From Anaerolineae bacterium (GTDB lineage Bacteria > Chloroflexota > Anaerolineae > B4-G1): a DNA stretch of 19,890 nt. The DNA lies in the NCBI GenBank assembly GCA_030612585.1, contig JAUWNP010000070.1:1-19890 (forward strand), given 5' to 3'. Position numbers and translations under genes: made by a program. Positions 11,057 to 19,890 of this stretch are shown here, one piece after another (the first letter of the stretch is position 1; every line of letters begins with the position of its first letter). The notes beneath the pieces are model-generated. The model was given only the letters and a program-made list of their open reading frames with translations, had not been told where the DNA came from and ran no database searches.

Positions 11057-12239
11057 GGATGATCCCCTCCGCCCACCAGGCTACTACCCGCGCCCGCTGC
11101 ACCTGACCCTCGTCTTCAGCGACCTACTGGGACGTATACCCCCACTGATGCTCACGCCTGCCTGGCTGGCGCTGGCCGCGATCGCGTGCTGGCCCTGGGG
11201 TGCCCTCCGTCTCCCGGCTGCCGCCTTGTCGCTGGCCTTCACCATCGCCGACGGGACTGGCCTGGCACTACTCCCCCGACTGGAACGTTCCTTCGGGCCC
11301 GTCACCCCGCCTCTGTTGGCGCTGACCCTCGGCCGCACAGTCCTTGCCTTCGCGGCTGGTCTGCTTTGGGCAACCTGGCCCGGCCTGCTGCTGAGTGCTG
11401 CGTTACACCTCGCCATCACCGCCGCCTTTCTCTACGCCACATGGGTCGAGCCATTCCGCATCGGGGTCACACAGGCCGAACTGCGCTCCTCCAAACTCAA
11501 CGGTGACGCCCCGCTGCGGTTGCTCCACATCACCGACCTGCACATCGAGCACATCACCCCACGCGAGCAGAAGTTGCTCCAGTTGGTCCAGGAACTGGCC
11601 CCTGATGTCATAGTTATCACCGGTGACTACCTCAACCTGTCATCCGTCTACGATCCCGGCGCCCAGGCCGAGGCACGTGACCTGCTGGCTCAACTCTGTG
11701 ACATCGCTCGCAGCCCCGTTTACGCCATCAACGGCAGCCCCCCGGTGGATCGCTCTGACGTCGTGCCGGCCATCTTCGAGGGCCTGCCCATCACCTGGCT
11801 GCTGGACGAGACAGTCGAACTGCACATCAACGACCATACCCTACGTCTCGTCGGCCTGCGCTGCACCCGCGAGCGTCACCTGGATGCACCGCGCCTCCGT
11901 CGCTTGATGGACGATAGTCCGGGGGACAGATTCACATTGCTGCTCTACCACTCCCCCGACCTGATGCCGGAGGCGGTAGAATTGGGCGCCGACCTCTATC
12001 TCTGTGGTCACACCCACGGCGGACAGATCCGCCTGCCTCTGTTCGGCGCGCTCGTCACCAGTTCCGATTTCTGGAAGCGCTACGAGATGGGCCGCTACGA
12101 GGAGGGAAAAACAACGCTCTACGTGAGCCGCGGGTTGGGGATGGAGGGGCTGGGCGCTCCACGTGCTCGTTTCCTCGCCCCGCCCGAGGTCGTGCTGTGG
12201 ACGTTGTCAAGACCTGACAGGTTTCCACAAATTTCGTGA
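11055..12239 (+). CDS. Membrane-anchored metallophosphoesterase (calcineurin-like, YkuE-related) with degenerate active site
   Basis: This protein has 394 residues. Residues about 25-140 form four predicted membrane helices rich in Leu, Ala and Trp. A calcineurin-like phosphoesterase domain then begins with LLHITDLHIEH (Asp161, His163). The second motif is GDY (Asp191) and the last is GHTHGGQ (318-324), with LYHSPD before it. The third motif, normally GNHD/E, reads NGSPPVD around 227-230, so the usual Asn metal ligand and the catalytic His are missing. The enzyme may be impaired, may use another residue, or may belong to a divergent clade. The last dozen residues are encoded within an inverted-repeat element, so the C-terminus may have been reshaped by its insertion. 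The start lacks a ribosome-binding site; a later start would remove part of the first helix. Confidence 0.85.
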   Translation: MDDPLRPPGYYPRPLHLTLVFSDLLGRIPPLMLTPAWLALAAIACWPWGALRLPAAALSLAFTIADGTGLALLPRLERSFGPVTPPLLALTLGRTVLAFAAGLLWATWPGLLLSAALHLAITAAFLYATWVEPFRIGVTQAELRSSKLNGDAPLRLLHITDLHIEHITPREQKLLQLVQELAPDVIVITGDYLNLSSVYDPGAQAEARDLLAQLCDIARSPVYAINGSPPVDRSDVVPAIFEGLPITWLLDETVELHINDHTLRLVGLRCTRERHLDAPRLRRLMDDSPGDRFTLLLYHSPDLMPEAVELGADLYLCGHTHGGQIRLPLFGALVTSSDFWKRYEMGRYEEGKTTLYVSRGLGMEGLGAPRARFLAPPEVVLWTLSRPDRFPQIS

Positions 12240-12308
12240 CTTGAGGCCCCATTTGTCACTCGGCAACTGTGTTGAACAGCAAGTCTTGGGTAAAAACCTG
12301 TCAGGTCT
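12210..12308. repeat. Inverted-repeat element with AGACCTGACAGGTTT ends
   Basis: A 15-bp sequence at 12210-12224 is repeated as its exact reverse complement at 12294-12308. Each arm has its own near-palindromic core (ACCTG-A-CAGGT). The 99-bp unit contains further short dyads (GTGAC/GTCAC and GACTTG/CAAGTC), so it can fold extensively. The left arm lies inside the 3' end of the metallophosphoesterase gene and contributes its last codons. ACCTGACAGGT-type repeats are, to my knowledge, abundant between genes in Chloroflexota. A mobile origin (MITE-like) is possible but no target duplication is evident. Confidence 0.6.
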
Positions 12309-12466: not shown

Positions 12467-12515
12467 GTTAGCCACTAGCCGCTGATCGCTAACCGCTGAC
12501 TGCTACCCGCTATAT
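12467..12515. repeat. Degenerate heptanucleotide tandem repeat (consensus GCTRACC) before the phosphate transporter gene
   Basis: Seven consecutive 7-bp units (from 12467, 12474, 12481, 12488, 12495, 12502 and 12509) align on GCT-R-A/G-C-C, for example GTTAGCC, GCTGATC, GCTAACC and GCTACCC. The array ends two bases before the transporter ATG, so it replaces the place where a ribosome-binding site would be expected; none is visible there. Similar period-7 arrays occur elsewhere in this window with unrelated units. Confidence 0.7.
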
Positions 12516-12517
12516 CT

Positions 12518-13504
12518 ATGTCACCATTATTGATCATCTTCATCGCCATAGCCCTGGCCTTCGACTTCCTGAATGGCTTCAACGATAGCGCCAACATCGT
12601 CGCTACCATGATCTCATCGCGCGCCATGAGCCCACGACGCGCCCTGCTGCTCAGCGCAGCAGCACATTTCATCGCCCCCTTCCTCTTCGGTGTCGCCATA
12701 GCGACCACCATCGGCCACGAAGTGGTGCAACCCCACGCGGCCACGATGTCGGTCGTGCTGGCAGCACTCCTGGCGGCCATCGTCTGGAATCTGATTACCT
12801 GGTTGCTCGGCATCCCTTCCAGTTCCTCCCATGCCCTCATCGGCGGGCTGGTAGGTGCGACCATTGTGGGCCACGGGATAGACGCCGTACAACTCCATGG
12901 GCTGCTCAAAATCGTCATCGCGCTCCTACTATCGCCACTGGTGGGGCTGTTCGGGGGTTACATTCTCATGAAACTGGTGCTTTTCCTGGCGCGAGGGGCC
13001 TCGCCGCGCATCAATTGGTTCTTCAAGAGCGCGCAGACTTTCACCGCGTTGGCGCTGGCGTTGGGCCACGGGACAAACGACGCGCAGAAAACGATGGGAC
13101 TCATCACTATGGGCCTGGTGGGAGCCGGAGCACTGACACAATTCCAGGTGCCGTTGTGGGTAATTGCTGCTTGTGCTGGGGCCATCTCCCTGGGGACGGC
13201 CACGGGCGGCTGGCGTATCATTCGCACGCTGGGAGGGAAATTCTACAAGATCCGCCCGGTGCACGGCTTCACCGCCCAGTTAACGTCGGCAATCGTAATC
13301 CTGGGGGCAGCACTGCTGGGCGGCCCCGTCAGCACCACCCAGGTGGTCAGTTCGGCCATCATGGGCGTCGGGTCGGCCGAGCGGTTGAGCAAGGTGCGCT
13401 GGGGGGTCGTCGGCAACATCCTCACCGCCTGGGTGCTGACCATCCCTACCTCGGGGCTCCTGGCGGCGCTGGCGTATCTGGTGGTGCGGCGTATCGTGGT
13501 ATAG
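12518..13504 (+). CDS. pit: PiT family inorganic phosphate transporter
   Basis: This 328-residue integral membrane protein carries out cation-coupled uptake of inorganic phosphate or metal-phosphate. The two PiT signature repeats are clear: GFNDSANIVATMISSRAMSP near residues 20-39 and LGHGTNDAQKTMGLI around Asn187-Asp188. The serine-rich motifs GIPSSSSHALIGG and GPVSTTQVVSSAIMGVGSA are also present. About ten hydrophobic helices are expected. The length fits the short bacterial type lacking the long central cytoplasmic loop of E. coli PitA. The gene is followed after 9 bp by a DUF47/PhoU-like gene, the standard partner arrangement. The ATG at 12518 is preceded by a heptamer repeat array and not by a recognisable ribosome-binding site. 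Confidence 0.95.
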   Translation: MSPLLIIFIAIALAFDFLNGFNDSANIVATMISSRAMSPRRALLLSAAAHFIAPFLFGVAIATTIGHEVVQPHAATMSVVLAALLAAIVWNLITWLLGIPSSSSHALIGGLVGATIVGHGIDAVQLHGLLKIVIALLLSPLVGLFGGYILMKLVLFLARGASPRINWFFKSAQTFTALALALGHGTNDAQKTMGLITMGLVGAGALTQFQVPLWVIAACAGAISLGTATGGWRIIRTLGGKFYKIRPVHGFTAQLTSAIVILGAALLGGPVSTTQVVSSAIMGVGSAERLSKVRWGVVGNILTAWVLTIPTSGLLAALAYLVVRRIVV

Positions 13505-13513
13505 GAGGAGAGT

Positions 13514-14143
13514 ATGGGCTGGTTACAACGTTTCTTCAAGGCGCAGCCGAATCGGTTTATCCAGTTATTGATCCAGCAGGCCGAGTATACCGTCAAAGGT
13601 ATGGAGGCACTACAGGAGTACATGGATGACCCATGCAAGGAACGGGCCGGACTTGTCACACGGATGGAGAAAGAGGCTGACGAGGTACGACGCATCCTGA
13701 TTGACGAACTGAACCGCACCTTCGTCACGCCGATTGACCGCGAGGACATCTTTGCTCTCTCGCGTGCTATTGACGACATCATTGACTATGGCTACACGAC
13801 GGTAGGTGAAATGGACATCCTCGAAGTGGAACCGAACGACTATCTGCGGCGCATGGCCTCCCTGCTGTGCGATGCCGCGCACGAGATCTACGTGGGCGTG
13901 CAGCGGCTGGCCGACCATCCTGGCGTGGCTGAGGATCACGCCGTGCGGGCCAAAGCGCTGGAGAACCGCATAGAGACGGTCTACCGAGAAGCCATCGCCG
14001 AACTATTCCACAGGCCACAGGATATAGAACACGTGGTGGAGATGCTCAAACTGCGCGAGATCTACCGTCACTTGAGCAACGCTGCCGACCGGGGAGACGA
14101 GGCAGCCAACGTACTCTCCGACATCGTGGTCAAGATGACGTAG
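13514..14143 (+). CDS. DUF47 family protein (PhoU-like, partner of Pit transporter)
   Basis: This 209-residue, mostly helical cytoplasmic protein belongs to the DUF47/TIGR00153 family, structurally related to PhoU. Typical stretches are ITRMEKEADEVRR-like (VTRMEKEADEVRRILIDEL), NRTFVTPIDREDIFALSRAI and DDIIDYGYT. PhoU-like proteins carry acidic E/D-xxx-D motifs that bind metal clusters, matching the conserved EADE and DREDI acids here. Genes of this family nearly always accompany Pit transporters and are thought to modulate their activity. AGGAGGAG lies directly before the ATG, so it is strongly translated and co-transcribed with the transporter. A heptamer repeat array starts at the base after its stop codon. 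Confidence 0.94.
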   Translation: MGWLQRFFKAQPNRFIQLLIQQAEYTVKGMEALQEYMDDPCKERAGLVTRMEKEADEVRRILIDELNRTFVTPIDREDIFALSRAIDDIIDYGYTTVGEMDILEVEPNDYLRRMASLLCDAAHEIYVGVQRLADHPGVAEDHAVRAKALENRIETVYREAIAELFHRPQDIEHVVEMLKLREIYRHLSNAADRGDEAANVLSDIVVKMT

Positions 14144-14217
14144 AATGAACAATGAACAATGAACAATGAACAATGAACAATGAACAAATGAACAAATGAA
14201 CAAATAAACAAATGAAC
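14144..14217. repeat. Tandem repeat AATGAAC (6 x 7 bp) passing into AAATGAAC (4 x 8 bp)
   Basis: Immediately after the DUF47 stop codon, six perfect copies of AATGAAC run from 14144 to 14185. Four 8-bp units with one added A (one carrying AAATAAAC) then run from 14186 to 14217. The near-perfect copies suggest recent expansion by slippage. The base composition (about 25 percent GC) contrasts sharply with the surrounding GC-rich genes. No gene is in this spacer, though each unit contains an ATG. Confidence 0.93.
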
Positions 14218-14223
14218 AAATCT

Positions 14224-14250
14224 GCCCGAACACGGTAGATAACTTCGGGC
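14224..14250 (+). promoter_or_regulatory. Hairpin GCCCGAA/TTCGGGC in the leader of the LuxR-Kelch gene
   Basis: A perfect 7-bp stem (14224-14230 and 14244-14250) with a 13-nt loop lies 19 bp before the start codon. There is no T tract. It could end the Pit/DUF47 transcript or control translation of the LuxR-Kelch gene. Confidence 0.4.
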
Positions 14251-14269
14251 CGATGACGAATCGGGAGAC

Positions 14270-15604
14270 ATGCCTGAATACGGCGAGCCCCTCACCAAAC
14301 GCGAAAAAGAGATTCTGCGACTGGTAGCGACCGGCGTCACCAACCGCGAGATTGCCTACCAGTTGAGTATCAGTGTCAACACTGTCAAGGTTCACCTGCG
14401 CAACATCTTCGCCAAGTTAGGGGTCGAATCGCGCACCGAAGCGACGATGGTCGCCGTACGTGAGGGCTGGGTGCCCGTTGAGAGCGTCGAAGGAGCATCA
14501 GAAAGCGATACCGGTGCGCTTCTCCCATCCATTCCGCCGGTTGCCCCGGAGCCACCCCTTCCCTGGCCCAAGCGAGTGGCGCTGATTGCTGCCCTGCTGC
14601 TTGTAATGGCCGGGGTAGCCATGACGTGGCCCCGCAGCAGTCCACCAGAGGGTCCCGAACCGGATCTACCGCTAGACCAACCGCGAGGGCAGCCAGCAGT
14701 TGTGATAGAGGACACAGAATCCCTCTGGCAGGAGCAGGCCCAGATGCCCACCCGCCGGGCGTACCTGGCACTTGCCGCAGTGGGGGACAGGATTCTGGCT
14801 ATCGGAGGCTTAACCCCTGAGGGGGTCACGGCTGCAGTGGAGGCATACGATCCCGAAAACGACGTCTGGACGCCGGGGAGCGACAAGCCCACGCCGGCGG
14901 CCTACGTCTCGGGCGCTGTGATCGGGACGGAAGTGTACGTGCCGGGCGGCTGCGACGCTGAGAATACACCGACGCGGAGAGTCGAGGTCTACGATGCCCT
15001 GGCCGACTCCTGGCGCGAGGCCAGGCCACTGCCGGAACCACGTTGCGCCTACGCGCTAACCGCGCTGGATGGAAGGCTTTACCTCTTCGGCGGGTGGGAC
15101 GGGGAGCGGTACGTCGCCACGGTGTACGTCTACGATTCCCAGATGGATACCTGGACCGAAACAACGGCGATGGACACAAGGCGGAGCCTTGCCGCAGCCG
15201 CTCCTCTGGGGGAACTCCTCTACGTCGTGGGCGGATACGATGGCGAGCGAGAGATGACCACGTGCACAGTCTACGACCCGGTGGCGAGGACGTGGGCGGC
15301 GTGCGCACCGCTGGCAGTGGGGCGAGGAGGGCTGGGCCTGGTCGCTATGGGCAGCCAACTCTACGCCATCGGTGGGGGCGGCTGGACCAGTTACCTGGGC
15401 TTCAACGAGCGCTACAACCCGGCCGACGACACCTGGAACGTGGTTGAAACACCATTGATAGGACAATGGCGCAGCCCGGGCGTGGTCGCATTCGATACCA
15501 CCATCTACGCCGTCGGTGGCTGGAACGGTGACTACCTGAGTCTGAACCAGGCCTACGCAGCACTGCCCTTCCGCATCTTCATCCCTGTAGGCCGTCAACA
15601 GTAG
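14270..15604 (+). CDS. LuxR-type HTH protein with transmembrane helix and Kelch-repeat propeller
   Basis: This protein has 444 residues in three parts. Residues about 5-70 are a LuxR/GerE helix-turn-helix (LTKREKEILRLVATGVTNRE then IAYQLSISVNTVKVHLRNIF), normally found at the C-terminus of response regulators but here at the N-terminus. After a Pro-rich linker, residues about 101-121 form a single hydrophobic helix (RVALIAALLLVMAGVAMTWP). Residues about 152-435 form six Kelch blades, each with a double glycine (AIGGL, VPGGC, LFGGW, VVGGY, AIGGG, AVGGW) and spaced Tyr/Trp (VYD..TW). The topology predicted is a cytoplasmic DNA-binding domain and an outside sensor propeller, a one-component membrane regulator. 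No receiver domain is present. The ligand and target genes are unknown. The start follows a CGGGAGA ribosome-binding site. Confidence 0.9.
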   Translation: MPEYGEPLTKREKEILRLVATGVTNREIAYQLSISVNTVKVHLRNIFAKLGVESRTEATMVAVREGWVPVESVEGASESDTGALLPSIPPVAPEPPLPWPKRVALIAALLLVMAGVAMTWPRSSPPEGPEPDLPLDQPRGQPAVVIEDTESLWQEQAQMPTRRAYLALAAVGDRILAIGGLTPEGVTAAVEAYDPENDVWTPGSDKPTPAAYVSGAVIGTEVYVPGGCDAENTPTRRVEVYDALADSWREARPLPEPRCAYALTALDGRLYLFGGWDGERYVATVYVYDSQMDTWTETTAMDTRRSLAAAAPLGELLYVVGGYDGEREMTTCTVYDPVARTWAACAPLAVGRGGLGLVAMGSQLYAIGGGGWTSYLGFNERYNPADDTWNVVETPLIGQWRSPGVVAFDTTIYAVGGWNGDYLSLNQAYAALPFRIFIPVGRQQ

Positions 15605-15613
15605 AGCGAGACA

Positions 15614-16567
15614 TCACAGCGCCGGGCTAGCCAGCCGTGAGACCTTGACCCCCACCTCGCGCCAGGTGATCTTTGAGATCCCCAGTTTCTGGCGTAGTTT
15701 GTCGGCTGGCATTCCCGCCCGGTAGTCACGCACCGCGCAGGTCCAGCGCAGCATCTCAAAGGAGAGAGCGTGGCCCAGTTCGGCCCGCCGGGCCACGTCG
15801 GCCAGGACGTACTCCAGGTTGCGGGCGGTGCAGGGGAAGATCGATCCCTGCGGCTGGTGCTGGGCGCGGTACTCGGCCAGCACAGCCGGCCACCACACCG
15901 GCAGGCGTAGTTTGCGCTCCTTGTGCTGACGGCGGGGGTTGGTGTAGCGGATCCACAGCACCGGCTGGGTGGGGTCGCTGAAGTCGAAGTGGTTCATCAC
16001 GAGACTCATACACTCCCCCTTCTTGATACCGGTGTGGAGGAGCAACGTCACGAGGAGGTGAGGACGGGCATCAAGTTTTTCAGCGTGGCGCAGCGCTTGA
16101 GTCACCCCCAGCACCCGCTCGACCTCGGCGTCGGAGAGAATCTCGGGCAGCGGCGTCATCACCGGCTTGTGAACCACGGGGTCAGCAGGGTCGAAAGGCA
16201 ACACCTCAGCCTCGACCAGCCAGCCGAAAAAGACCTTGAGCGTGGTCACGCGCCGGGCCAGCGACTTGGGGTTGCAGGGCACACCGCGCTCGCGCACCAG
16301 CCAGTCGGTGAAACGATTGAGATCGCGGGTGGAGATGACACCAATGGCTGTCCCCACACCGATAAACTGGGCCAGGATGTTGAGGTCGGAGAGAAAAGCC
16401 CTGATAGTGTTTTCGGCGAAGCCCTGCTGCTGCATGTGAACCTCGAAACCGCCCATAGCGGCACGCAGCGAGGAGCGGGCGTCCAGACCAGGTGGGGCCA
16501 CGGCTCCTGGAGGCCCCTCCATAGAGACAGGAATATCCGCATCGGGCAGGACCATTTGTTCGACCAT
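15614..16567 (-). CDS. Tyrosine-recombinase-like protein lacking most catalytic residues
   Basis: This is a 317-residue protein with the XerC/D-like two-domain layout: an N-terminal SAM-like core-binding domain (about 35-130; FEVHMQQQGFAENTIRAFLS, DLNRFTDWLVRERGV) and a C-terminal catalytic fold. Of the family's R-K-H-R-H/W-Y set, only Lys219 and Arg274 are kept. The first Arg is Lys182 (TGIKKGE), the HxLR His is Glu271 (EMLRW), the LGH His is Ile297 (LGIS), and no tyrosine exists after 282, so the nucleophile is absent. It therefore probably binds DNA without recombining it, or it is a decaying integrase whose frame is still intact. The ATG at 16567 follows GAGAGG and a near-consensus promoter. 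Its 3' end faces the LuxR-Kelch gene with a 9-bp gap. Confidence 0.82.
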   Translation of the reverse strand: MVEQMVLPDADIPVSMEGPPGAVAPPGLDARSSLRAAMGGFEVHMQQQGFAENTIRAFLSDLNILAQFIGVGTAIGVISTRDLNRFTDWLVRERGVPCNPKSLARRVTTLKVFFGWLVEAEVLPFDPADPVVHKPVMTPLPEILSDAEVERVLGVTQALRHAEKLDARPHLLVTLLLHTGIKKGECMSLVMNHFDFSDPTQPVLWIRYTNPRRQHKERKLRLPVWWPAVLAEYRAQHQPQGSIFPCTARNLEYVLADVARRAELGHALSFEMLRWTCAVRDYRAGMPADKLRQKLGISKITWREVGVKVSRLASPAL

Positions 16568-16605
16568 TGTACACCTCTCTTTCGCGTAGCCGTTCGTCCA
16601 GGCCT

Positions 16606-16634
16606 ATTCTACCCTCAAGCAGAGACAATGTCAA
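16606..16634 (-). promoter_or_regulatory. Near-consensus sigma-70 promoter for the recombinase-like gene
   Basis: On the minus strand, TTGACA (16634-16629) is followed after exactly 17 bp by TAGAAT (16611-16606, 5 of 6 to TATAAT). Transcription would begin near 16599, giving a leader of about 30 nt before the ATG at 16567. This is the best promoter in the window. Confidence 0.82.
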
Positions 16635-16646
16635 ACACACTAATCC

Positions 16647-16674
16647 CGCGGGGCGTGTAACGCGGAGCCCCGTG
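16647..16674. promoter_or_regulatory. GC-rich inverted repeat in the divergent promoter region
   Basis: CGCGGGGC (16647-16654) pairs with GCCCCGTG (16667-16674) with one G-T pair and a 12-nt loop. It lies between the divergent recombinase-like and lipid kinase genes, just behind the -35 box of the minus-strand promoter. It may be an operator or an mRNA leader hairpin for the kinase gene. A TATAGT at 16685-16690 is a possible plus-strand -10 box without a clear -35. Confidence 0.4.
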
Positions 16675-16739
16675 GCGTGTTCTTTATAGTGATTGTGAAC
16701 AATCTATCCGGTCGCAGGAGGACACTAAAGGAGGACACT

Positions 16740-17648
16740 ATGGGACCCATCAAGGTCATTCTCAACCCGGTCGCGGGCCAGGGTTACGGTGCAAAGATTG
16801 AGCCTGAGTTGCGCCGGCTTCTGCAAGCGGAGGGACTGAATTTCGACCTGGTACGCACAGCCAGGCCGTGGCACGCGGCAGAACTGGCCGAACAGGCGAT
16901 CGGCGACGGCTTCGAGACCATCGTCGCCGCGGGTGGCGACGGCACGACGAACGAGGTGGTCAACGGTTTGATGGCGGCCTCGGAAAACGGAGCAAGCGGT
17001 ACGCTGGGCATCATCCCGGTCGGTTCCGGAAGCGACTTCGCCAACACAGCGGGGGTGCCTCCCCATTTGCCAGGAGCGTGCCATCGGCTGGCAAACGGCC
17101 AGACCAGGACAATGGACGTGGGCCGGGTCACGCTGCCGGGCCAGGCTCCCCGCTACTTCGACAACACCGTGAACGTCGGTTTTGGTGGTGCCGTGACACT
17201 CGAGGCTCGCAAGGTCAAACGGCTACGTGGAATTGCTCTGTACCTGCCGGTGGTGCTGAAGGTAATCTTTCTATACTACAAGGCTCCGTCGGTCACCATC
17301 GAGTACGACGAGCAGGAGTTGGCCCTGCGAGCAGTGATGATTAGCGTCGCCAACGGGCCGCGCGAGGGAGGCGGCTTTTACGTCGCGCCCCAGGCCCAAC
17401 CCGACGACGGTCTCTTCGACCTGTGCATCGTGCGCGAGGTGAGCCGGCTGGCCATGCTGGGCCTCGTCCCCCACTTTATGAAGGGCACCCACGTGGGCCG
17501 CGAGCCGGTCACGATGGCCCGTGCCCGGCGGGTGACCATCTCCTCACCGGACGACCTGGTCGCTCACATGGACGGGGAGGTCTTGTGCACTGACAGTCAC
17601 CGGATAGAGTTTGAGATTCTACCCCGGCGGTTGCGGGTGCGGTGTTGA
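16740..17648 (+). CDS. Diacylglycerol kinase family lipid kinase (YegS/DgkB/LCB5 type)
   Basis: This is a soluble, membrane-associated lipid kinase of 302 residues, likely phosphorylating diacylglycerol or a related lipid with ATP. I chose the ATG at 16740, preceded by AAAGGAGGA at 16727-16735 and giving the family opening KVILNPVAGQGYG; an in-frame ATG at 16677 lacks a ribosome-binding site. The nucleotide motif GGDGTTNEVVNGL is at 65-77. The usual GTGNDFA-type motif is present as PVGSGSDFANT, and FDNTVNVGFGGAV follows. A C-terminal beta-sandwich domain ends with VAHMDGEVL. The PlsY-like gene follows after a heptamer array, so the pair points to phosphatidate or phospholipid metabolism. The ribosome-binding region contains a duplicated GGAGGACACTA. 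Confidence 0.92.
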   Translation: MGPIKVILNPVAGQGYGAKIEPELRRLLQAEGLNFDLVRTARPWHAAELAEQAIGDGFETIVAAGGDGTTNEVVNGLMAASENGASGTLGIIPVGSGSDFANTAGVPPHLPGACHRLANGQTRTMDVGRVTLPGQAPRYFDNTVNVGFGGAVTLEARKVKRLRGIALYLPVVLKVIFLYYKAPSVTIEYDEQELALRAVMISVANGPREGGGFYVAPQAQPDDGLFDLCIVREVSRLAMLGLVPHFMKGTHVGREPVTMARARRVTISSPDDLVAHMDGEVLCTDSHRIEFEILPRRLRVRC

Positions 17649-17695
17649 TTGAAGATTGGAGATTGGAGATTAGAGATTAGAGATTAGAGATTGGA
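17647..17695. repeat. Heptanucleotide tandem repeat GATTRGA between the lipid kinase and PlsY-like genes
   Basis: Seven 7-bp units run without interruption from 17647 to 17695: GATTGAA, GATTGGA twice, GATTAGA three times, then GATTGGA. The first unit overlaps the last two bases of the kinase stop codon. The last unit merges into GGAGGGA, which can serve as the PlsY-like gene's ribosome-binding site. Related GATAGA/GATTAGA sequence also occurs at 5014-5027. Confidence 0.93.
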
Positions 17696-17709
17696 GGGAA
17701 GCAACGGCG

Positions 17710-18288
17710 ATGATTGAGTTTTTCTCGGCTGGGCTATTGGGGTATCTGCTGGGCGCGGTGCCCACGGGTGTATTGGTGTGCCGGGCGCTGCGGGGCGCGG
17801 ACGTGCGGCAACAGGGCAGCGGGCACACCGGCGGGCTGAACGTATCCCGCTCGGCCGGCATCTGGGCTGGCGCACTAACTGCCGTGGTGGATGTCCTCCT
17901 GGGAGTGGCGGCTGTCGCCGGGGCCACACTGATGACGGACAACCCCTGGGCGGCCACGGTGGCCGGCGTGATGGCGGTGGTGGGCCATAATTGGTCCGTC
18001 TTCATCCGCTTCGGCGGTGGCATCGGCCTCTCCACACTTGCGGGCACGCTGCTATGGCTATCGCCCGTGCTCACGCTGACGGCGCTGGTCGCCCTGGCGC
18101 TTGTCTGGGTGACCCTGGCAAGGCTATTGCGCGTTCACCGAGCCCGGGCCACGATACTGACGATGATAGCAGTCGGGCCGCTGCTATGGGCGCTAGGGTT
18201 GCCGCTGCACGGTATTCTGCTCGGAGTACTGGACGGAGCGGTGGTTATTCTCAAGACACTCCCGGACTGGAACAGGCAGTACGAGTAG
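17710..18288 (+). CDS. PlsY-like glycerol-3-phosphate acyltransferase family membrane protein, divergent
   Basis: This 192-residue membrane protein with about five hydrophobic helices resembles PlsY, which acylates glycerol-3-phosphate from acyl-phosphate. Motif positions are recognisable but altered. The opening LGYLLGAVPTGVLV matches the family. The GSGNxGATNxxR loop reads GSGHTGGLNVSRS (36-48). The GHxxPVFxxFKGGKGVAT loop reads GHNWSVFIRFGGGIGLST, losing the conserved lysines and proline. The family's late acidic helix feature is also not evident. Activity on the usual substrate is therefore uncertain; it may be a paralogue working on a different lipid. It lies 61 bp after the lipid kinase. 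The ATG at 17710 is about 12 bases from GGAGGGA, a rather long spacing. Confidence 0.82.
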   Translation: MIEFFSAGLLGYLLGAVPTGVLVCRALRGADVRQQGSGHTGGLNVSRSAGIWAGALTAVVDVLLGVAAVAGATLMTDNPWAATVAGVMAVVGHNWSVFIRFGGGIGLSTLAGTLLWLSPVLTLTALVALALVWVTLARLLRVHRARATILTMIAVGPLLWALGLPLHGILLGVLDGAVVILKTLPDWNRQYE

Positions 18289-18358
18289 GGAGGTGGGGGG
18301 GAGGGGGGGACAAGGGGCAAGGAGACGAGAGGCAGGGGGCAGAGGGCAGGGGGGCAAC
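18289..18358. repeat. Purine-rich G-run repeat with approximate 7-bp period (CAGGGGG)
   Basis: Directly after the PlsY-like stop codon the plus strand is almost purely purine with long G runs (18294-18300, 18303-18309, 18314-18317, 18335-18339, 18349-18354). From 18311 the CA or CG steps recur at 7-8-bp intervals, giving degenerate CARGGGG units. At least four runs of four or more G make a G-quadruplex on the plus strand possible. The remainder of the convergent spacer, 18359-18436, shows nothing recognisable. Confidence 0.7.
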
Positions 18359-18436: not shown

Positions 18437-19819
18437 CTAGGGCAGCATCAGCGCGTTCATGTAGGCTTCGACAAAACGCGGATGGGTGGTCAGTTCGATG
18501 TACTCCACGCGGCGGGCGATCTCCTCGGTGACCGCGCGGCAGCGACGGGACACCAGCGCCAGTTTGGCGCCCATGCCAGCACCGTTCCCCACCTGGACAA
18601 ACCGTTCCCGAGGCAGCGGCGGGAACATCCCCACCGCCAGCGCACTGTCCACGTCCAGGTAGGTGCCGAAGGCCCCTGCCACCACCACGCGCTCGATCTG
18701 TTCCGCTTCCAGTCCGGCCTCGCTTAGCAACACCTCGATCCCGGCGCGGATGGCCCCCTTGGCCAGTTGGATCTCGTTCACATCCTTGCGAGTGACAACC
18801 AGGTCGCGGGGTGCGCCTCGCTCGCCAGCCGGGACGAGCAAGAACTCGGATCTAGCACCCTCCCCACGAACACAGGGATGGCTGCCCGGCTTCATCGCAC
18901 CATTGGCCTCCAGCACACCGACCCGCCGCAGTTCGGCCACGCTGTCCAGCACGCCGGAGCCACAGATGCCCACCGGCGGCGCACTGTCAATCGTCTGGTA
19001 CTCGACCTGCTCGCCAGCCAGCCGCACCCACTCAACCGCGCCCGGCGCGGCCCGCATCCCATCGTGAATGTGCGCCCCCTCGAAGGCTGGGCCGGAGGCG
19101 CAGGAGCAACTTAGCAGCCGTCCTTCGCCTTTGCTCAGGACAGGGCCGCCCACCGCCAGGCTGATCTCCGTGTTGGTGCCGATATCCAGGCCGACGGTGA
19201 TCTCGCGAGCCTCGTGCATACGAGTCGCCAGGAGCATAGCCACGTGATCCGCGCCTACGAAGCCGGCGATGTTGGGCAGAAGGTGGATATTTGCGCCAGG
19301 GACGAAACACAGTCCCAGTTCCCGCGCTTTCAGATCATAGGAGTCAGCCAGGGCAGGCACGTAGGGAGCCAGGCCCAGTTGGGCCACCGGCAACCCCAGC
19401 ACCAGATGGTGCATACAGGTATTGCCCACCAGCACCGCCTCGACGATCTCGGCGCTTTCGCGCCCGACCCGCGCACACAACTTGCGGGCCAGGTCGTCCA
19501 GCCCGCCGGTGAGAACTCGCTGGAGTTCCTGCGCCTGAGTCTCTCCCTCCATCGCATAGGCAATGCGGGTCATCACGTCTTCCCCGTAGGCGATCTGAGG
19601 GTTCATCGCGCCAGCGGCCTCTAGCGTCTCGCCGCTCTCCAGATCCACCAGATAGGCGGCCAGTTTGGTCGTGCCGATGTCCACCGCCAGCCCCAGCGGC
19701 GAGATATCAGCCGGTGCGACGGAGATGACCTCACCATCTCGGACGACGACGCGGACGCGCCAGTCGTTCTCCCGCAGCAAGGCAGGGAATCGGCACAGCG
19801 CTGCGTGGTCGAATCGTGG
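18437..19819 (-). CDS. RACo-type corrinoid activation/regeneration ATPase (DUF4445/ASKHA family), 5'-truncated
   Basis: The protein matches the C-terminal ASKHA ATPase part of RACo/RamA proteins, which use ATP and a [2Fe-2S] ferredoxin domain to reduce inactive Co(II) corrinoid proteins of methyl transfer systems. Visible motifs are the first phosphate motif GLAVDIGTTKLAAYLVDL, the second VGLDIGTNTEISLAVGG, the adenosine motif VVAGAFGTYLDVDSALAVG, plus NTCMHHLVLGL and SCSCASGPAFEGAHI. The frame contains a TTG at 19780, but the upstream codons read on as linker sequence (RFDHAALCRFPAL) until the G/C-only contig end near 19820. The start and the N-terminal ferredoxin domain (roughly 130-200 residues) are missing. 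It is a plausible partner of the MttB-like methyltransferase near the other end of the window. Confidence 0.88.
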   Translation of the reverse strand, partial: PRFDHAALCRFPALLRENDWRVRVVVRDGEVISVAPADISPLGLAVDIGTTKLAAYLVDLESGETLEAAGAMNPQIAYGEDVMTRIAYAMEGETQAQELQRVLTGGLDDLARKLCARVGRESAEIVEAVLVGNTCMHHLVLGLPVAQLGLAPYVPALADSYDLKARELGLCFVPGANIHLLPNIAGFVGADHVAMLLATRMHEAREITVGLDIGTNTEISLAVGGPVLSKGEGRLLSCSCASGPAFEGAHIHDGMRAAPGAVEWVRLAGEQVEYQTIDSAPPVGICGSGVLDSVAELRRVGVLEANGAMKPGSHPCVRGEGARSEFLLVPAGERGAPRDLVVTRKDVNEIQLAKGAIRAGIEVLLSEAGLEAEQIERVVVAGAFGTYLDVDSALAVGMFPPLPRERFVQVGNGAGMGAKLALVSRRCRAVTEEIARRVEYIELTTHPRFVEAYMNALMLP

Positions 19820-19890
19820 GGGCGGGGGGGGCGGCCGCCGCGGGCGGGGGGGGGGGGGGGGGGCGGGGGGGGCGGGGGGGGGCGGCGGCG
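19820..19890. other. Low-complexity G/C-only contig end, probable sequencing or assembly artefact
   Basis: After about 19819 the sequence contains only G and C, including an 18-20-base G run broken by single C residues. It interrupts a gene whose upstream part should encode a conserved ferredoxin domain. Such tails are typical of poly-G reads from two-colour sequencing or of unresolved assembly ends. It should not be read as biology. Confidence 0.85.

What the first reader, a model, noticed from the sequence alone, without database searches (positions are those of the whole stretch)
12467..18358. Four period-7 tandem repeat arrays with unrelated units fill the intergenic spacers
Arrays at 12467-12515 (GCTRACC), 14144-14217 (AATGAAC), 17647-17695 (GATTRGA) and 18289-18358 (CARGGGG) share a 7-bp period but not a sequence. 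Three begin at or within two bases of a stop codon, and the fourth ends just before a start codon. Finding the same period, position and length range with different units argues for a common process, such as a replication or repair mechanism or a selected 7-bp spacing. It resembles the heptanucleotide STRR repeats known in cyanobacteria. The arrays could vary in length and tune spacing between co-transcribed genes.
Basis: partly seen in the sequence, partly recalled or inferred. Interest (0 to 1): 0.75.

Follow-up and report, generated by a model that had tools for sequence, protein, structure and literature searches.

The report
Heptamer repeat arrays between Anaerolineae genes
Seven-letter DNA words repeated head to tail sit in the gaps between genes of an uncultured Chloroflexota bacterium; they belong to families of such words that occur in many of its relatives, an abundant but still unexplained kind of bacterial repeat.

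Summary
The period-7 arrays are real: arrays 1-3 far beyond chance, array 4 marginal and G-rich; array 2 drifts to period 8 half-way. In sampled relatives period 7 dominates: 41 of 97 arrays, 61 of 97 for multiples of 7, 21 of 97 for multiples of 8 (1.86 Mb, 42 genomes plus window), though one genome, G045, gives most of the period-7 arrays. Arrays concentrate in spacers, close behind stop codons. Several relatives carry the same gene pairs with spacers of at most 17 bp and no array, so the arrays are lineage-specific additions. Best reading: dispersed heptanucleotide tandem repeat families, comparable to cyanobacterial STRRs and Chloroflexus GATAGRA satellites, that expand by slippage and are tolerated between stop codon and ribosome-binding site. 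How they disperse is unknown; tuning of spacing is untested. A new member of a known kind, unusually rich in units.

The parts
12467..12515 (+). array 1: 7 degenerate GCTRACC units in the leader of the PiT-type gene, ending 2 bp before its start codon
   Evidence: lag-7 identity 0.62, 0 of 5000 shuffles; weak TRF hit; GCTRACC triplets in 4 of 48 genomes of the order
14144..14221 (+). array 2: (AATGAAC)6 turning into an 8-mer array (AATGAACA) from 14179, starting directly after the stop of the DUF47/PhoU-like gene
   Evidence: spacer 126 bp here, 6 bp in L001 and 14 bp in L006
17647..17696 (+). array 3: seven GATTRGA units (first one GATTGAA) between the kinase-like gene and the PlsY-type gene, overlapping the stop codon
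   Evidence: lag-7 identity 0.93; spacer 61 bp here, 17, 14, 5 and -7 bp in G012, G023, G009, G016
18289..18358 (+). array 4: degenerate G-rich CARGGGG-like stretch behind the stop of the PlsY-type gene, in a convergent spacer
   Evidence: lag-7 identity 0.60, marginal; CARGGGG triplets exist in 5 of 48 genomes of the order
12518..13504 (+). PiT-type phosphate permease gene downstream of array 1
   Evidence: relatives align from residue 1
13514..14143 (+). DUF47/PhoU-like gene upstream of array 2
   Evidence: Pfam PF01865
14270..15604 (+). LuxR-type/Kelch gene downstream of array 2
   Evidence: Pfam GerE and Kelch models
16740..17648 (+). diacylglycerol kinase-like gene upstream of array 3 (name from recalled sequence type, not from a family scan)
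   Evidence: orthologs in relatives
17710..18288 (+). PlsY-type glycerol-3-phosphate acyltransferase gene between arrays 3 and 4
   Evidence: Pfam PF02660

Best explanation
The arrays are local members of a lineage-wide set of dispersed heptanucleotide tandem repeat families of the Chloroflexota class Anaerolineae. Shown: the units recur across loci and species; period 7 (with 14 and 21) dominates, with a second peak at 8; neighbouring copies are the most alike; and several relatives have the same gene pairs with short, array-free spacers. Inferred: a few heptad units were seeded at new sites by an unknown copying or conversion process, expand and shrink there by slippage in whole units, mutate into neighbouring units, and now and then slip to an 8-nt unit (visible inside array 2). 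They persist where they do least harm, between a stop codon and the next ribosome-binding site, which is why they look attached to gene ends. No function at these four loci is needed to explain them.
For: Period: 41 of 97 arrays are 7, 61 of 97 multiples of 7, 21 of 97 multiples of 8; one block shuffle of each of 15 groups gave no array. Recurrence: G045 39 exact-unit pairs at unlinked loci against 1.6 (maximum 6 of 200 runs) for shuffled units; unbiased set 48 against 3.1. Each of the four units occurs as an exact triplet elsewhere in the order: 3, 2, 4 and 5 of 48 genomes, reversed-pattern controls 0; GATTRGA in 86 of 396 and AATGAAC in 12 of 396 genomes of the class, 8 with both, Fisher p 0.0009. 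Local growth: identity 0.88 between adjacent units, 0.67-0.70 six to seven apart. Recent gain: spacers of 5-17 bp or overlapping genes without array in relatives. Tolerance: 40 of 59 intergenic; placement leans to the stop. Copying between loci: composite stretches shared by pairs of loci in G045.
Against: No mechanism of dispersal was found: among non-heptad 13-mers shared by array flanks none listed occurs at more than two loci. Only 3 consensus units of the unbiased sample occur in more than one genome. The reversed-pattern control is not silent at class level: 24 hits against 51 in G349, and it equals or exceeds the pattern in G070, G108, G157 and G177, and in G284 for AATGAAC. G045 dominates the counts, and more of it was fetched because it looked rich. 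Most genomes sampled at 3-20 kb showed no array.
Confidence: 0.6

Rival explanations
1. Independent birth in place: a replication or repair property with a footprint of about 7-8 nt duplicates whatever heptamer lies in a spacer, and arrays then grow by slippage (the polymerase-footprint idea credited to Mrazek et al. 2007 in passages of PMC4692102 and PMC4679880). Mismatch repair would correct short loops of 1-4 nt but not 7-8 (general knowledge).
For: Sharp 7/8 periodicity with few other periods; adjacent units most alike; MutS1 matches over the cut-off in 38 of 48 genomes of the order, among them G045, G031, G032, G034, G024, G021; the ancestral-looking spacer of G012 contains a GAAAGGA that could seed GATTGGA.
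Against: Exact units recur at unlinked loci and in other species far above chance; units share AAT/ATT in 16 of 34 cases against 6.9 expected (post hoc).
Confidence: 0.27
2. Selected elements: the arrays tune spacing, translation coupling or transcript structure between neighbouring genes.
For: Placement close behind stop codons; 14 of 47 codirectional arrays fill more than 70% of their spacer; 4 of 9 neighbouring array pairs are near-complementary and could form hairpins.
Against: Not conserved: of 10 relatives with the kinase-PlsY pair only G045 and, below my threshold, G031 have a heptad array there, with other units. No sense-strand bias in purines (23 of 47), stop codons (20 against 14) or ribosome-site-like words (12 against 8). 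No Rfam match, no terminator excess, no array-built hairpin in arrays 2 and 3.
Confidence: 0.08
3. An active enzyme or mobile element writes the arrays (templated addition, or a non-autonomous element carrying heptads).
For: One dictionary of units per genome, composite successions of units repeated at several loci, facing pairs, an in-frame three-copy GATTRGA run inside mutS of G016.
Against: No common ends beyond two loci; no candidate enzyme was searched for.
Confidence: 0.04
4. Chance or assembly artefact.
For: Array 4 alone is near chance; the window ends in a G-run that looks like an artefact.
Against: Shuffle tests for arrays 1-3; the same units in many other genomes.
Confidence: 0.01

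Closest known systems
STRR heptanucleotide repeats of cyanobacteria (name from the finding; three tandem heptanucleotides of Calothrix PCC 7601 as cited in PMC4692102, passages read)
   Same: Several tandem heptamer families in one genome.
   Different: Other phylum; the Calothrix unit sequences were not held and not compared; here many more units, mosaic arrays and 8-nt offshoots.
GATAGRA satellites of Chloroflexus aurantiacus (PMC6749651; passages, abstract and section 10 read)
   Same: Heptamer arrays in the same phylum, 22 satellites in one genome; GATAGGA is one base from GATTGGA.
   Different: One unit in one species of another class; here many units across Anaerolineae.
GGGAATC repeats of Xanthomonas and GGGGA(C/T)T repeats of Nostoc (PMC4692102, passages read)
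   Same: Abundant intergenic heptamers with unit variants, varying in length and sequence between related genomes; ATTGGGG, the Nostoc unit, also occurs in G045.
   Different: One dominant G-quadruplex-type unit per genome.
TAACTGA direct repeats of Beggiatoaceae (PMC4679880, passages read)
   Same: Intergenic heptamer arrays at gene ends, some overlapping a stop codon.
   Different: One fixed unit, mostly just upstream of start codons; here many units, nearer to stops.

Membership tests
Bacterial heptanucleotide long simple sequence repeats | Tandem unit of 7 nt, longer than chance | tested here: met
   Arrays 1-3 against shuffles; array 4 marginal
Bacterial heptanucleotide long simple sequence repeats | Period 7 over-represented in the lineage | tested here: met
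   41 of 97 arrays, in relatives, not in the window's own genome
Bacterial heptanucleotide long simple sequence repeats | Mainly intergenic | tested here: met
   40 of 59 against 12.0%
Bacterial heptanucleotide long simple sequence repeats | Repeat number differs between strains | not testable with these tools
   No strain pair or reads of this organism held
Cyanobacterial STRR | Several heptamer families dispersed in one genome | tested here: met
   G045: 9 consensus units at two or more arrays
Cyanobacterial STRR | Same unit sequences as the cyanobacterial STRRs | not tested
   The unit sequences were not in any text read
Chloroflexus GATAGRA satellites | Unit GATAGRA | tested here: not met
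   Window units are GCTRACC, AATGAAC, GATTRGA, CARGGGG
Non-autonomous mobile element | Constant ends shared by many copies | tested here: not met
   Array flanks share more 12-mers than random spacers (G045 121 against mean 42, maximum 109; others 34 against mean 7.5, maximum 35), but about half are heptad-like and the other 13-mers listed occur at two loci each

The most novel reading that the evidence does not exclude
Anaerolineae carry an active, clade-specific process (a polymerase property or a templated enzyme) that writes and copies 7- and 8-nt repeats, producing a shared and evolving dictionary of heptads; one unit alone, GATTRGA, is found in 86 of 396 sampled genomes of the class.
Probability: 0.1. 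Interest if true: 0.75.

Novelty: new member of a known kind. Interest (0 to 1): 0.45.

Why it matters
That heptanucleotide repeats are over-abundant in bacteria has been noted (passages of PMC4692102 and PMC4679880) but not explained. This clade offers many arrays and units, array-free orthologous spacers at base resolution and 7-to-8 drift inside an array, so the two main ideas, a 7-nt slippage footprint against dispersal and descent of a few families, become directly testable with strain pairs or long reads. Such arrays can also create spurious ORFs in annotation.

Tried and rejected
Stop codons as a backup after the gene: 20 arrays with more stops in sense, 14 with fewer, although six of array 1's seven units read TAG, TAG, TGA, TAA, TGA, TAC at the same place. 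RNA structure in the window: no Rfam match; 4 terminator-like sites against 3.9 expected, none inside an array, one about 20 bp behind array 4; arrays 2 and 3 build no clear hairpin, array 4 pairs within its G-rich spacer. Loss of mismatch repair as the cause: MutS1 over the cut-off in 38 of 48 genomes. Literature: the searches listed no report of these units in Anaerolineae; the library is open-access only, and Mrazek 2007 and the original STRR paper were not read.

Limits: gene positions come from a simple caller written here; it puts the PiT-type start at 12530 where homology supports 12518, and arrays called 'inside genes' may lie in spurious ORFs. Sampling was of chosen contigs (low contig numbers or contigs with kinase hits), and more of G045 and G011 was fetched after they looked rich. 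Ten pattern-fetched loci (L134-137, L144-146, L150-152) were left out of the period, unit-pair and intergenic counts but kept in the position test (4 of 47 arrays), the adjacency test and the flank tests. In the orthologous-spacer count the same spacers enter many pairs.

Full report
What is there. The window is a contig without a held genome. Its closest relatives by the PiT-type gene are Anaerolineae MAGs (L001 78%, L002 73% identity), and by the kinase-like gene G002, G009, G021 and G023 (72-73%). Arrays 1-3 are solid; array 4 is marginal. Array 2 is (AATGAAC)6 followed by an 8-mer array.

Period across relatives. I read 1,862,585 bases not fetched by a repeat pattern, from 42 genomes and the window. 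At my main threshold there were 102 arrays of period 2-15: 59 of period 7, 22 of period 8, 8 of period 14 and 13 others. G045 gave 42 of the 59, and more of G045 had been fetched because it looked rich. Outside G045 and the window there were 43 or so arrays by period: 15 of 7, 13 of 8, 7 of 14 and 9 of other periods, 44 in all. With one score threshold for all periods from 1 to 40 there were 97 arrays: 41 of period 7, 11 of 14, 8 of 21, 1 of 28; 13 of 8, 3 of 16, 5 of 24; 15 others. One block shuffle of each of 15 groups gave no array. In 80 loci around PiT-type genes, of wider origin, 9 of 29 arrays had period 7. Many genomes sampled at 3-20 kb gave no array at all. In G045 arrays are clumped by stretch (51 arrays, p 0.002), which could also reflect mixed origin of a MAG.

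Position. By a simple gene caller 40 of 59 period-7 arrays are intergenic against a 12.0% intergenic share (p 2e-23); outside G045 9 of 17, the window's two included. Of 47 intergenic arrays of period 7, 8 or 14 between codirectional genes, 21 start within 5 nt of the upstream stop or overlap it, 11 lie within 5 nt of the next start or overlap it, and placement leans to the stop (mean 0.39 of the free spacer, n 44, KS p 0.0004). Selection against insertions near the ribosome-binding site would leave such a pattern (inference).

Empty sites. The kinase-like and PlsY-type genes are neighbours in 10 of 15 loci examined. Their spacer is 61 bp with GATTRGA in the window, 65 bp with a GCAAGAA-type array in G045, 69 bp with three GCAAGAY units (below my threshold) in G031, but 17 bp in G012, 14 in G023, 5 in G009 and -7 in G016; G002 and G021 have 141 bp with an inverted repeat, G008 69 bp without an array, and G015 about 32 nt between the aligned parts, without an array. 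In G012 the spacer reads TGA CGAAAGGAGCAACGACA ATG; the window has a similar last part and the array between it and the stop (compared by eye). The DUF47-LuxR/Kelch spacer is 126 bp in the window, 6 bp in L001 and 14 bp in L006. L001 has no array upstream of its PiT-type gene, and the printed 260 bases behind the PlsY-type gene of G012, where a similar convergent gene follows, have none either (by eye). Among 2214 orthologous spacer pairs, many of them redundant, 53 have an array on one side only and 3 on both; the 3 reduce to the kinase spacer of the window and of G045, which was fetched twice.

Units are not unrelated. In G045, 39 pairs of arrays at unlinked loci share the exact consensus unit; shuffled units give 1.6 on average, 6 at most in 200 runs. 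All four of the window's units occur as exact triplets in other genomes of the order: GATTRGA in 3 of 48, AATGAAC in 2, GCTRACC in 4, CARGGGG in 5, with no hit for the reversed patterns. In the class, GATTRGA occurs in 86 of 396 genomes, with up to 302 overlapping hits in one (G355), and AATGAAC in 12 of 396; 8 of the 12 have both (Fisher p 0.0009). Against this: the reversed control also hits in GATTRGA-rich genomes (24 against 51 in G349, 19 against 92 in G271), and in G070, G108, G157 and G177 it exceeds the pattern, as it does in G284 for AATGAAC; and only 3 consensus units of the unbiased sample occur in more than one genome. Of 34 distinct units 16 contain AAT/ATT against 6.9 expected from shuffled units, a post-hoc observation.

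How they change. Adjacent units are 88% identical, units six to seven apart 67-70% (28 arrays, 21 and 16 at the far end), as expected from local duplication. Arrays in G045 turn stepwise from one unit into another, with similar successions at three places in L247, and a longer stretch is shared by L236 and L247 (by eye). Of 9 neighbouring array pairs within 80 bp, 4 are complementary with at most 2 mismatches and none is alike in direct orientation at that level; facing GATTRGA pairs are listed in G407 and G164. In G016 a three-copy GATTRGA run lies in frame inside mutS, in a loop that is 13 residues longer than in the best-matching MutS chain. Array flanks share more 12-mers than random spacers do, but about half are heptad-like and the other 13-mers listed are shared by two loci each, so there are no constant ends.

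Mechanism. I favour dispersed heptad families that grow by whole-unit slippage and survive in spacers (0.6). Birth in place through a 7-8 nt slippage footprint is the main rival (0.27). MutS1 matches over the cut-off in 38 of 48 genomes, among them the array-rich G045, G031, G032, G034, G024 and G021, which fits the scarcity of 1-4 nt units under either view. Selected spacing or translation elements (0.08) lack conservation and sense-strand signals. Length variation, expression and dispersal could not be tested directly.

Known context. Read as passages: PMC4692102, PMC4679880, PMC4060949; PMC6749651 as passages, abstract and section 10. They report heptamers as over-represented in bacteria, the polymerase-footprint idea, single-unit families in Xanthomonas, Nostoc and Beggiatoaceae, three heptanucleotides in Calothrix and a GATAGRA family in Chloroflexus. 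This finding extends that kind to Anaerolineae, with many units per genome.

Noticed in passing
window 12210-12224 and 12294-12308: Perfect 15-bp inverted repeat (AGACCTGACAGGTTT) around the end of the metallophosphoesterase gene. The arm occurs in 12 of 48 genomes of the order, up to 40 hits in G031, control 0; arm starts are 84 bp apart here, 83 bp in G019 and G020, 18-19 bp in most G031-G033 pairs: a dispersed hairpin element.
   Followed up: partly
L136 (G016 contig C143) 16411-19998, minus strand: mutS with an in-frame insert of about 440 residues at the Walker A site; Pfam finds Intein_splicing and LAGLIDADG_3 there. G041 shows a similar gap in one open frame.
   Followed up: partly
window 19818-19890: The window ends in a long G-run with few other letters, probably a sequencing or assembly artefact.
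   Followed up: no
window 14270-15604: A LuxR-type DNA-binding domain fused to Kelch repeats, with orthologs next to the DUF47 gene in L001 and L006.
   Followed up: no
window 15614-16567, minus strand: A lone tyrosine recombinase gene (Phage_integrase and SAM-like domains) between the LuxR/Kelch and kinase-like genes.
   Followed up: no
L082 and L091 (G002, G021), spacer behind the kinase-like gene: 141-bp spacer with a long inverted repeat built of CGCAGAG-like words; similar words flank arrays in G045.
   Followed up: no
L189, L190, L192 (G031) and L205, L244, L247 (G045): An octamer family around the palindrome AACGTT (AACGTTTG) in both genomes.
   Followed up: no
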